42,884 nucleotides of DNA from Candidatus Stahliibacteriota bacterium. Its GTDB lineage: Bacteria > Hydrothermota > Tepidihabitantia > SM23-42. Below the pieces are notes generated by a model, which was not told the DNA's origin, did no database searches, and saw only the letters and a program-made list of their open reading frames with translations. The translations under genes were made by a program, and so were the position numbers. The stretch's first letter is position 1, and each line of letters begins with the position of its first letter. Positions 1 to 24,639 of the stretch are shown here, one piece after another. Location: the NCBI GenBank assembly GCA_030602565.1, contig JAUVZL010000018.1, positions 1 through 42,884 of the forward strand. Reading direction: 5' to 3'.

Positions 1-318
1 AATAATACTTTCAACAACATGCATGATTATTTCCATATCGCTTGCAGATTCACTTATTTCTCGAGCTTGGAAATAACATGCAGCAGACTTGTTGTTTTGA
101 GCTAACAACCTAAAGTACATAAGCAGACAGCTTTTTCCTGAACCCCATCCACCATTTATGATGTAGTGGTTCGTCTTTCCTGTTTTGGCTTCGTCTATTT
201 TCTTTAAGAAAAGACCTATTTCTTTGTCTCTATCGATAAAGACTTTGGGTTCTTGACCTGATTTTGGACTGAAGGGATTAGGTTTTATCATTTCAATCAT
301 CTCTTTAATGTTAGTCAA
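1..318 (-). CDS. P-loop ATPase, N-terminal part (runs off the left edge)
   Basis: The 106 visible codons are the N-terminus; the rest lies outside the window. After about 45 residues there is a Walker A motif, GGWGSGKS, preceded by an 'FIDRDKEIGLFLKKID' segment. A conserved R-D-x-E stretch before the P-loop is typical of AAA_16/archaeal-type ATPases related to ORC/STAND proteins. No Walker B is visible. The start chosen is TTG at 318, with an AAGGAGGAG Shine-Dalgarno just upstream; no ATG gives as good a fit. The family assignment is tentative because the sensor and effector regions are missing. It could be a KAP, STAND or transposition-type ATPase. Confidence 0.65.
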   Translation of the reverse strand, partial: MTNIKEMIEMIKPNPFSPKSGQEPKVFIDRDKEIGLFLKKIDEAKTGKTNHYIINGGWGSGKSCLLMYFRLLAQNNKSAACYFQAREISESASDMEIIMHVVESII

Positions 319-718: not shown

Positions 719-746
719 GGATCGTCCGATCTGGTCGGACGATGAC
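719..746 (+). repeat. GGAT...ATGAC hairpin repeat, copy 2
   Basis: GG, stem ATCGTCCGA, loop TCTGG, stem TCGGACGAT, GAC. The stem sequence differs from the other copies but pairing is kept. Confidence 0.65.
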
Positions 747-912: not shown

Positions 913-1548
913 TCACCATGACTTCGGCTTATATATTTCTTTTCCAGCTTTTAGCACTGCGGGATTTGGGAATTGATGTTTTATATACTGTTTTTTACTG
1001 ATTGAGAAAGATCCAGGTGCGAGGGAAGCTAATTCTTTGTTTTTTCTCGCGTAAGGAAAGCAAAAGACGATCTTTTTCGCGGGGAACAAATTCTTGCATT
1101 TTCTTATTGCAGGTGAAAGATCTGTATCACCCGACACAATAACAGCGGTATCGCATTCATCTTTCAGGAAAATTTCTACGACTTTGATGGCAATAGTAAC
1201 ATCTGTTTCTTTTTCTTCATGTTTTAAAACCATGCTCTTGCATTTGTCGCAATATACATATTTAACCTTAAAGCGCCCAAGTTCAACGTTTATCCCCGAT
1301 GATTCTAAACAGCTAATATAATCTTTATGGCGCTGGATTTTTCTTGGATCTTGCGCACTCAGGTAATAAGGGATAGCTGAAAAATAATGGATTGCTTGGA
1401 CTTGTGCGTCTTTACCAAAAAGATGGATATATGATTTCATCAAAGAAGCAAGATCTAACCATTTTGTGCAATAGCCGGTATGACGCCTGAGCTCTAATGT
1501 TGAATGGTAGATATTAAATCCGTCAATTAGGAAGATTACTCTATTCAT
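913..1548 (-). CDS. NYN-domain (LabA/DUF88-like) putative ribonuclease
   Basis: A 211-residue protein with the PIN-like NYN fold signature. Asp9 sits in 'VIFLIDGFNIYHS', Asp116 in 'KETDVTIA', and Asp141 and Asp143 in 'VSGDTDLSPAI'. In the family these acidic residues coordinate metal for RNA cleavage. Cys100 and Cys103 (CDKC) suggest half of a zinc site. The tail is basic and Pro-rich ('KAGKEIYKPKSW'), possibly RNA-binding. The protein is complete for a stand-alone NYN protein, predicted cytosolic. It lies alone, facing left. The ATG at 1548 has its GGAGG 11 nt upstream inside a hairpin, so expression is probably controlled at the leader. The target RNA is unknown. Confidence 0.85.
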   Translation of the reverse strand: MNRVIFLIDGFNIYHSTLELRRHTGYCTKWLDLASLMKSYIHLFGKDAQVQAIHYFSAIPYYLSAQDPRKIQRHKDYISCLESSGINVELGRFKVKYVYCDKCKSMVLKHEEKETDVTIAIKVVEIFLKDECDTAVIVSGDTDLSPAIRKCKNLFPAKKIVFCFPYARKNKELASLAPGSFSISKKQYIKHQFPNPAVLKAGKEIYKPKSW

Positions 1549-1553
1549 GGCAA

Positions 1554-1606
1554 GAAAAACCTCCGGATCGTAACCCGGAGGTGGCTAGTGAGCCGTAGCT
1601 CACTAG
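1554..1606 (-). promoter_or_regulatory. Double-hairpin leader that encloses the NYN ribosome-binding site
   Basis: On the transcript, hairpin 1 pairs CTAGTGAGC with GCTCACTAG around a 4-nt TACG loop (1585-1606). Hairpin 2 pairs CCGGAGG (1560-1566) with CCTCCGG (1575-1581) around an 8-nt loop. Hairpin 2 is followed by five T, so it looks like a terminator, yet its 3' arm is also the only Shine-Dalgarno (GGAGG) for the gene. It could act as an attenuator, a sequestered ribosome site or an autoregulatory cleavage site. Confidence 0.6.
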
Positions 1607-1622
1607 GGATGATTACATTATA

Positions 1623-1650
1623 ATTATATTGCATTTTAGCATTTTGTCAA
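1623..1650 (-). promoter_or_regulatory. Promoter of the NYN gene
   Basis: TTGACA (1645-1650), 16 bp, TATAAT (1623-1628) on the minus strand. Four nt later comes ATG directly followed by TAA (1613-1618), a minimal start-stop at the predicted RNA 5' end. Confidence 0.75.
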
Positions 1651-3049: not shown

Positions 3050-3077
3050 GTCATCATCCGGTTTAACCGGATGATCC
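3050..3077 (-). repeat. GGAT...ATGAC hairpin repeat, copy 5 (minus strand)
   Basis: Read on the minus strand: GGAT, stem CATCCGG, loop TTAAA, stem CCGGATG, ATGAC. Same flanks as the other copies with a different, fully paired stem. Confidence 0.65.
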
Positions 3078-3085
3078 AGGAATTT

Positions 3086-3113
3086 GGATTGCCCGATCGA
3101 GTCGGGCAATGAC
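3086..3113 (+). repeat. GGAT...ATGAC hairpin repeat, copy 4
   Basis: GGAT, stem TGCCCGA, loop TCGAG, stem TCGGGCA, ATGAC. Confidence 0.7.
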
Positions 3114-3427: not shown

Positions 3428-3792
3428 AAAATATGCAACGAGAGGACTCGTTGCACTCCATAGATGACACCATCTTCGATGGCGTCGATTACCCCGTACG
3501 TTTGACAACTTACGGGGCAGGCAGTGATAGCAGAAAGATTATCCCGAATTTTCCTATTTTGTTATTTAATAATGGTAATTCGTTTACCCCGTAGTTCGCA
3601 GAACAGCGGGGAGGATCCCGTTTTACGGGACACAGATGTTAATTTTTCCGCCATCAGAGTCTACTTCAGCCGTAGGATCAAGGTAATTCAAGGTCGGGGG
3701 TTTCCCGTTTCTATCATTAGGAAAGAAAAGGATATTTTAAGGAAACGGGATCCCGATTCCTTGGAATTAAAAGATTTAATGTAGAATCGGGA

Positions 3793-4002: not shown

Positions 4003-4080
4003 GAATATTTTTAGTATAACTTAGTAATTTCTTTTTGCAACGAGAGGGCTCGTTGCACTCCATAGATGTAATAACGGATA

Positions 4081-11406: not shown

Positions 11407-11599
11407 TTGACAGGGTGACCGAGAATGCCGGAATTTGTAGGAGTAGAGCCTTCAGGCTCGTTAAATGTGGAGTGCAACGAGTCCCCCTCGTTGCATGCAA
11501 TGTCAGGAGACATTGCACTCCAAAATACGGGCGTAAACGCCTGCCTGTGCGTCGCACGCAAACAGGTCCTACTCCTAATTCTCGGTCACCCTGTTGACA
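11407..11599 (+). mobile_element. MITE-like non-coding element A
   Basis: 193 bp bounded by inverted repeats: left TTGACAGGGTGACCGAGAAT, right ATTCTCGGTCACCCTGTTGA. Inside are a hairpin GGAGTGCAACGAG...CTCGTTGC, a hairpin GCAATGTC...GACATTGC and a CTGCCTGTGCGTCGCAC segment. The same order of modules occurs in reverse in element B (24301-24639). No coding capacity. It fills the divergent spacer between lysC and the next gene and provides that gene's -35. Confidence 0.75.
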
Positions 11600-24300: not shown

Positions 24301-24639
24301 GGGGTCAAATCTCGACAGGCGGGCCGAGAATAAGGAGTAGGGTCTGTCTGCGTCTACCTGTGCCGGTGGCACGCCTGCCTGTCGCGTTGGCGACGCAGAC
24401 AGGGCAGACAGGTGCGACGCACAGGCAGGCGTTTACGCCCGTATTTTGGAGTGCAATGTCTCCTGACATTGCATGCAACGAGGGGACTCGTTGCACTCCA
24501 CATTTAACGAGCCCCGTTTAAATACTAATTCCAATATACCAAAAACATTTTTCTATACCTTTATTTAACGGGGCGAGCCTAAAAGGCTCTACTCCAAGAA
24601 ATTTCGACATTCTCGGTCACCCTGTCGAGATTTGACCCC
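24301..24639 (-). mobile_element. MITE-like non-coding element B
   Basis: 339 bp with perfect 19-nt terminal inverted repeats (GGGGTCAAATCTCGACAGG and its complement); imperfect pairing continues to the CGAGAAT motif. Read on the minus strand it has the same modules as element A in the same order. It also has two additions: an AT-rich block near 24515-24565 and a CTGTCTGCG palindrome (24344-24430). No ORF is plausible. No clear target-site duplication is visible. Confidence 0.78.
24344..24430. repeat. CTGTCTGCG-type palindromic repeat nested in element B
   Basis: Nearly identical to 7540-7627; one arm joins directly to the MITE core. It suggests the palindrome was either inserted in the element or derived from it. 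Confidence 0.8.

What the first reader, a model, noticed from the sequence alone, without database searches (positions are those of the whole stretch)
1554..1606. Terminator-like hairpin that also hides the ribosome site of an NYN ribonuclease
The leader has two tight hairpins. The second ends in CCGGAGG and five T, so it looks like a terminator, yet its 3' arm is the gene's only Shine-Dalgarno. Both loops contain TACG. A nuclease made from an mRNA with such a leader invites an autoregulation model: the NYN protein may cut its own hairpin. The two loops could also bind a ligand or protein.
Basis: partly seen in the sequence, partly recalled or inferred. Interest (0 to 1): 0.58.

Follow-up and report, generated by a model that had tools for sequence, protein, structure and literature searches.

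The report
Hairpin RNA partner of NYN nuclease
The two hairpins in front of this nuclease gene are a small RNA that travels with the nuclease across many bacterial phyla, sometimes pointing the opposite way, so it looks like the RNA half of a two-part RNA-and-nuclease system, probably an RNA antitoxin of a phage-defence type, not just a switch on the gene's own message.

Summary
The two hairpins are real (minus strand, 1606-1559) and lie between a 12-of-12 sigma-70 promoter (1650-1623) and an NYN nuclease start codon (1548). They form a conserved RNA, absent from Rfam at gathering score, with strong covariation (A-type 93.5% of pair cells paired; B-type 93.9%). Covariance models find it next to the nuclease in 66 of 80 homologous loci from many phyla (49 of the 66 trained the models) and in 22 of 59 independent viral-contig loci. 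A model-free detector finds two hairpins plus a T run upstream of 53 of 80 nuclease genes and 0 of 91 control ORFs. In 26 of the 66 loci the RNA is transcribed away from the nuclease, and a protein tree needs at least 4 orientation switches. Several loci hold tandem arrays of 2-3 units. Hiding the Shine-Dalgarno is therefore incidental. The protein matches PADLOC's candidate defence family HEC-09. Best reading: a short RNA, terminated at hairpin 2, acts in trans on the nuclease, most likely as an RNA antitoxin, with layout like type III toxin-antitoxin and AbiF-RCd22 but a different toxin fold and a new RNA. RNA-protein binding, toxicity and phage defence are untested.

The parts
1623..1650 (-). 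sigma-70 promoter TTGACA-16-TATAAT, 12 of 12 matches; start of transcription expected near 1616
   Evidence: the same kind of promoter lies at this place in related loci
1553..1616 (-). predicted small RNA of about 60 nt (ends inferred, not mapped): 5' CAUCCC, hairpin 1, CC linker, hairpin 2, U tract
   Evidence: (model R1 74.9 bits, E 1e-18, but the window is a training row)
1585..1606 (-). hairpin 1, 9 bp, loop TACG
   Evidence: 8 of 9 pairs of this helix show changes on both sides across relatives
1559..1582 (-). hairpin 2, terminator-like, apical GGGUUACGAUCC; its 3' arm holds GGAGG (1564-1560)
   Evidence: (6 of 10 pairs with changes on both sides)
1555..1559 (-). run of five T after hairpin 2
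913..1548 (-). NYN-domain nuclease, 211 aa, PADLOC HEC-09 family
   Evidence: Pfam PF01936 E 5.8e-11; PADLOC PDLC04163 E 1.5e-50 over 1-211; invariant D9, N12, D116, D141, D143 in 35 homologues; AlphaFold2 mean pLDDT 96.3; Foldseek best hit 2qip E 3.5e-8

Best explanation
The hairpin pair is the gene of a short structured RNA that is a dedicated, trans-acting partner of the adjacent NYN nuclease. A strong promoter makes mainly the ~60-nt two-hairpin RNA, stopping at hairpin 2; where the RNA lies in front of the nuclease (window), occasional read-through gives the nuclease mRNA. The RNA most likely binds the nuclease and keeps it inactive, as an RNA antitoxin; when RNA synthesis stops or the RNA is destroyed, for example during phage infection, the nuclease is freed and cuts RNA. 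Shown here: the conserved RNA, its promoter, its tie to the nuclease, both orientations, tandem arrays, the protein family. Inferred: termination, binding, inhibition, toxicity, defence.
For: Covariation: A-type RNAs 93.5% of cells paired, score 0.565 against 0.229 shuffled and <=0.144 slid; B-type 93.9%, 0.507 against 0.200 and <=0.138. Tie to the nuclease: 66 of 80 loci at E<=0.01 (49 of the 66 trained the models); 22 of 59 independent viral-contig loci, every such hit just upstream of the NYN gene, many near copies; model-free detector 53 of 80 against 0 of 91 control ORFs. Whole genomes: 24 of 26 R2 hits in 37 genomes lie at NYN loci; in 297 genomes of the family of G175 (Arenimonas) all 6 with a strong HEC-09 hit (>300 bits) have the RNA beside it. 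Orientation: 40 co-directional, 26 divergent; own promoter score >=9 of 12 in 17 of 23 A and 17 of 25 B RNAs; at least 4 switches on the tree, 3 without the broken L097, one shown by L254 with an intact NYN. Tandem units in L079, L081, L087, L092 and, by eye, in viral loci such as L202 and L203. Known parallel: AbiF-RCd22 (PMC12373285).
Against: No expression, binding or toxicity data. Orphan RNAs exist: two of the eight genomes with a strong R2 hit (G280, G452) have no HEC-09 hit there, and in G491 three of seven strong R1 copies are not clearly next to an NYN gene. 14 of 80 loci do not match the models (most show two hairpins by eye; L055, L066 and L085 do not clearly). R1 and R2 recognise each other's loci only weakly, so their common origin is likely, not proven. 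Orphan RNA without toxin fits an antitoxin, but would also fit other RNA roles. The defence label rests on a PADLOC candidate; the one paper found that names HEC-09 correlates it with phage susceptibility (PMC12447246, one passage).
Confidence: 0.6

Rival explanations
1. Activating or guiding RNA: the RNA is a cofactor, precursor or sensor that the nuclease needs or processes (sensing phage RNA or an RNA-cleaving phage enzyme), not an inhibitor.
For: The same linkage, orientation and array data; stems differ from unit to unit within one array while the layout is kept, as a bait or sensor might; a CRISPR-associated NYN protein is reported to trim crRNA intermediates (PMC11346440, abstract).
Against: Terminator-limited read-through in the co-directional loci fits tight repression of a dangerous protein better, 59 the RNA occurs without HEC-09 twice, strong HEC-09 without RNA never.
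Confidence: 0.2
2. One reading: a cis leader. Hairpin 2 ends transcription and hides the ribosome site; the NYN protein binds or cuts its own leader to regulate itself.
For: In the window the only GGAGG is in the 3' arm and paired; a co-directional layout in 40 of 66 loci; [quoted passage not shown]
Against: Divergent RNAs in 26 of 66 loci; variable distance to the start codon and free Shine-Dalgarno in several relatives; tandem arrays.
Confidence: 0.13
3. Plain attenuator or insulating terminator with no partner, only lowering expression of a risky gene.
For: Hairpin 2 is terminator-like.
Against: Conserved loop, linker and 5' sequence, two covarying helices, inversion relative to the gene.
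Confidence: 0.05
4. Dispersed palindromic repeats that happen to sit before the gene.
For: The window is rich in hairpins.
Against: The leader and stem 1 are unique in the own genome; model hits are confined almost wholly to NYN loci.
Confidence: 0.02

Closest known systems
Type III toxin-antitoxin systems (ToxIN; CptIN seen in a search listing only; TenpIN recalled)
   Same: Promoter, structured RNA (repeats in some loci), short terminator hairpin, then a nuclease gene; PMC8860590 passages list promoter, repeat array, terminator and toxin ORF as the search criteria.
   Different: Nuclease is NYN, not ToxN; RNA units are two plain hairpins, no pseudoknot shown; often one unit; the RNA can be divergent.
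AbiF with ncRNA RCd22 (PMC12373285; abstract, section 7 and part 1 of section 13 read)
   Same: SigA promoter, ~100-nt RNA carrying two copies of a motif, Rho-independent terminator, read-through into the toxin gene; the RNA acts in cis and in trans by direct binding.
   Different: AbiF is a HEPN protein; its RNA motif is RF03085, which did not match here.
PADLOC HEC-09 (candidate defence gene)
   Same: The window protein matches full length, E 1.5e-50.
   Different: The PADLOC entry is a protein model only; no RNA partner came up in the searches.
DUF3800-associated RNA motifs in Rfam (e.g. RF02968 DUF3800-IX)
   Same: As recalled, small RNAs linked to one protein family; one member lies in locus L097.
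   Different: Different protein; no match to the RNA described here.
CRISPR-associated NYN ribonuclease of Bacteroides fragilis (PMC11346440, abstract)
   Same: NYN ribonuclease in a defence setting; Mn-dependent ssRNA cleavage.
   Different: Part of a type III CRISPR system; no hairpin RNA gene described in the abstract.

Membership tests
PADLOC HEC-09 | Full-length match to the HEC-09 protein model | tested here: met
   PDLC04163 E 1.5e-50, residues 1-211, profile 1-202 of 203
PADLOC HEC-09 | Anti-phage activity | not testable with these tools
   no experiment; PADLOC-DB holds models of known and candidate systems
NYN nuclease (PF01936) | NYN domain with conserved acidic residues | tested here: met
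   43.5 bits against cut-off 24.2; D9, N12, D116, D141, D143 invariant in 35 rows; that these are the catalytic residues is recalled
Type III toxin-antitoxin | Promoter, RNA, terminator hairpin, then nuclease ORF on one strand | tested here: met
   met in the window and co-directional loci; not met in the 26 divergent loci
Type III toxin-antitoxin | Tandem array of RNA repeats | tested here: inconclusive
   one unit in the window; 2-3 units in L079, L081, L087, L092 and by eye in L202, L203
Type III toxin-antitoxin | ToxN/AbiQ-type toxin fold and pseudoknot RNA | tested here: not met
   protein is NYN; RNA modelled as two hairpins, and pseudoknots were not searched for
Type III toxin-antitoxin | RNA binds and inhibits the toxin | not testable with these tools
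   needs experiment
AbiF-RCd22 | AbiF RNA motif RF03085 and HEPN protein | tested here: not met
   no RF03085 hit; protein is NYN
[quoted passage not shown]
   26 of 66 RNAs are on the opposite strand, pointing away
Rfam families | Match to a known RNA family | tested here: not met
   no gathering-level hit at the leader in the window; none at the RNA in the 26 other loci scanned

The most novel reading that the evidence does not exclude
HEC-09-type NYN nucleases form a large, mobile family of RNA-controlled defence modules, in which each nuclease lineage carries its own cognate hairpin RNA (this two-hairpin RNA, longer RNAs on small enterobacterial plasmids, terminator-hairpin RNAs of other NYN lineages). 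The RNA array, with a conserved layout but diverse stems, would be both antitoxin and infection sensor: a second, independent origin of type III-like immunity built on the NYN fold.
Probability: 0.38. Interest if true: 0.87.

Novelty: new variant of a known kind. Interest (0 to 1): 0.74.

Why it matters
It gives a candidate defence gene so far listed as a lone protein an RNA partner with strong covariation and a direct test. It would widen RNA-antitoxin systems beyond the ToxN-type and HEPN toxins compared here to the NYN fold, and it explains why a terminator-like hairpin stands just before these genes. Members occur in named isolates and plasmids (Thermus oshimai, Arenimonas, Salinivenus; a relative with a different RNA on small E. 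coli plasmids), so it can be tested in laboratory strains.

Tried and rejected
SD-hiding thermometer or riboswitch: rejected as the general function, because distances and free Shine-Dalgarnos vary and 26 of 66 RNAs are divergent. Alternative pairing between the two hairpins: none suggested by the fold of the window transcript. T-loop mimicry of tRNA by GGGUUACGAUCC: considered by eye and rejected, because columns 58-65 and 59-64 pair with changes, giving a tetraloop. Dispersed repeat: rejected. Rfam: no hit at the RNA. R1 over 147 genomes of the phylum: 6 genomes at E<=0.01; apart from the window, G073 lies at an NYN gene, and the weak hits in G033, G089, G115, G117 (24-25 bits) are not near that genome's NYN hit and are taken as chance. 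Literature: ten answered searches (two searches returned nothing) showed no paper on an RNA partner of NYN/HEC-09 in their listings; the library holds open-licence PMC papers only, and the 2017 paper on DUF3800 motifs (recalled) was not held.

Full report
OBSERVATION. A 12-of-12 sigma-70 promoter stands at 1650-1623. The gene is an NYN-domain protein, full-length PADLOC HEC-09, with a confident model (mean pLDDT 96.3) whose best solved match is 2qip, an uncharacterised Vibrio protein. It was not found in the 3 same-genus or 19 same-family genomes searched; 12 of 100 genomes (own included) have a match, the best relatives at 33-37% identity, while homologues with 65-73% identity sit in records titled Omnitrophota, Nitrospiraceae and Deltaproteobacteria. 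That is the pattern of a horizontally moved gene.

CONSERVED RNA. Upstream of the close homologues the same layout recurs: CAUCCC, hairpin 1, CC, hairpin 2 with GGGUUACGAUCC, U tract, start codon. In an alignment of 25 (A-type), 14 of 19 pairs show changes on both sides, and the covariation score is 0.565 against 0.229 for shuffles and at most 0.144 for slid pairings. More distant homologues carry the reverse-complement layout: read away from the nuclease, xACCCC, hairpin 1, CC, hairpin 2, U-rich tail. In an alignment of 26 of these (B-type; 25 divergent, L097 co-directional), 14 of 18 pairs show changes on both sides, score 0.507 against 0.200. Rows for both alignments were picked because the layout was visible, so the covariation shows what these rows share, not how common the RNA is.

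HOW OFTEN. Over the 80 loci L018-L097, models R1 and R2 together hit 66 at E<=0.01, 40 co-directional and 26 divergent (counted by hand from the tables); 49 of the 66 trained the models. Of the other 14 loci (L047, L055, L062, L065, L066, L070, L076, L082, L083, L085, L090, L093, L094, L096), most show two adjacent hairpins by eye; L055, L066 and L085 do not clearly. Independent test: in 59 viral-contig loci, R1 hits 21 and R2 hits 1 at E<=0.01, all immediately upstream of the NYN gene, many of them near copies. A detector that knows only 'two adjacent hairpins plus a T run' fires upstream of 53 of 80 NYN genes and 0 of 91 control ORFs (score >=20).

SPECIFICITY. In 37 whole genomes R2 gives 26 hits, 24 at NYN loci; the two others score 38.8 and 28.5 bits. 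In 38 genomes R1 gives 48 hits; of the 38 above 40 bits, 32 are the query loci (matched by bit score), and 6 are extra copies in G491, three of which adjoin an NYN gene or remnant and three of which do not clearly (one of those three sits before an HTH plus PIN_3 pair; the HTH label is by eye). In 297 genomes of the family of G175, 8 have R2 above 50 bits; 6 genomes have HEC-09 above 300 bits, all 6 among the 8; the other two, G280 and G452, have orphan RNAs, the latter beside a gene with a NOV_C domain. The weaker HEC-09 hits in that set have other NYN proteins and another hairpin.

TRANS, NOT ONLY CIS. B-type RNAs have their own promoter reading away from the nuclease: promoter score >=9 of 12 in 17 of 25, against 17 of 23 for A-type; mean best scores 9.3 and 9.7 against 6.4 and 7.2 for shuffles. 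On a careful tree of 51 proteins the orientation needs at least 4 changes, 3 without L097, whose NYN has an in-frame stop. L254, a Streptomyces plasmid with an intact NYN, has a B-type RNA in the co-directional sense (38.1 bits, E 3.4e-10) and is sister to the divergent L056 (100/91). Thermus oshimai plasmid NC_019387 has the divergent form at 60.2 bits, next to a helicase-related gene. An element that stays with its gene through inversion is best read as a separate RNA that meets the protein.

ARRAYS. L079, L081, L087 and L092 have two to three units at ~60-nt spacing. Viral-contig loci L202 and L203, and less clearly L199, L200 and L210, have arrays of hairpin pairs with different stems, the last pair before the U run (by eye).

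WHY NOT SD-HIDING. Among 25 A-type loci examined, a start codon was found in 23, 8-46 nt after hairpin 2; L018, L025, L027 and L044 have a free Shine-Dalgarno by eye. In the window itself GGAGG is sequestered, so cis repression may add to the control there.

MECHANISM. The layout (promoter, structured RNA, terminator, nuclease reached by read-through) equals that of type III toxin-antitoxin loci (PMC8860590, passages) and of AbiF-RCd22, where the RNA was shown to work in cis and in trans by direct binding (PMC12373285; abstract, section 7 and part of the Discussion). I therefore take RNA inhibition of the nuclease as most likely (0.6), an activating, guiding or sensing RNA as the main rival (0.2) and a pure cis leader third (0.13). 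Nothing here shows toxicity, binding or defence. The only paper found naming HEC-09 reports a correlation with phage susceptibility in Pseudomonas (PMC12447246, one passage), which is against a strong defence claim.

MEMBERSHIP. It works like a type III system but is not filed as one: the toxin family differs, no pseudoknot was shown, and the RNA may be divergent.

NOVELTY. No Rfam family and no paper in the listed searches describes it; the library lacks most subscription papers and preprints.

Noticed in passing
L181 2785-3453, L183 2582-3307, L251 1260-1985, L252 2301-3026 (small E. coli, Klebsiella and Salmonella plasmids): HEC-09-like NYN genes (E 1.7e-50 and 4.8e-49 for L181 and L183) preceded by a different, longer structured leader that ends in a strong terminator hairpin; 29 plasmid records at E<=1e-20.
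   Followed up: partly
L159-L166, L168, L169, upstream of the NYN gene: A different NYN lineage in genomes of the family of G175 has a recurrent terminator hairpin (GAAAAAACCGCC, loop, GGCGGTTTTTTC) just before the gene in most of these loci.
   Followed up: no
L007, L008, L009, L010, L011, L013, L016: Another NYN group has a single recurrent hairpin (CCCCGC...GCGGGG) between promoter and gene.
   Followed up: no
L097 3057-3140: DUF3800-IX RNA (RF02968, 58 bits) near a HEC-09 locus.
   Followed up: no
L187 1567-1627 and 421-975; genome G491: One genome has 8 R1 hits; one lies before a gene pair ending in a PIN_3 protein instead of an NYN gene.
   Followed up: partly
window 3434-3455, 4036-4057, 11473-11517, 24452-24495: Repeated palindrome TGCAACGAG....CTCGTTGCA, twice paired with a second palindrome TGCAATGTC....GACATTGCA.
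   Followed up: no
window 721-743, 2887-2909, 3053-3075, 3088-3110: Short palindromes of the type ATTCCCCGG...CCGGGGAAT, scattered in intergenic DNA.
   Followed up: no
window 1-318 minus strand: Partial P-loop ATPase downstream of the NYN gene, weak matches to BrxC_BrxD and KAP_NTPase.
   Followed up: no
L038, L043, L072, L084, L097: NYN genes with in-frame stop codons while the RNA is still recognisable.
   Followed up: no
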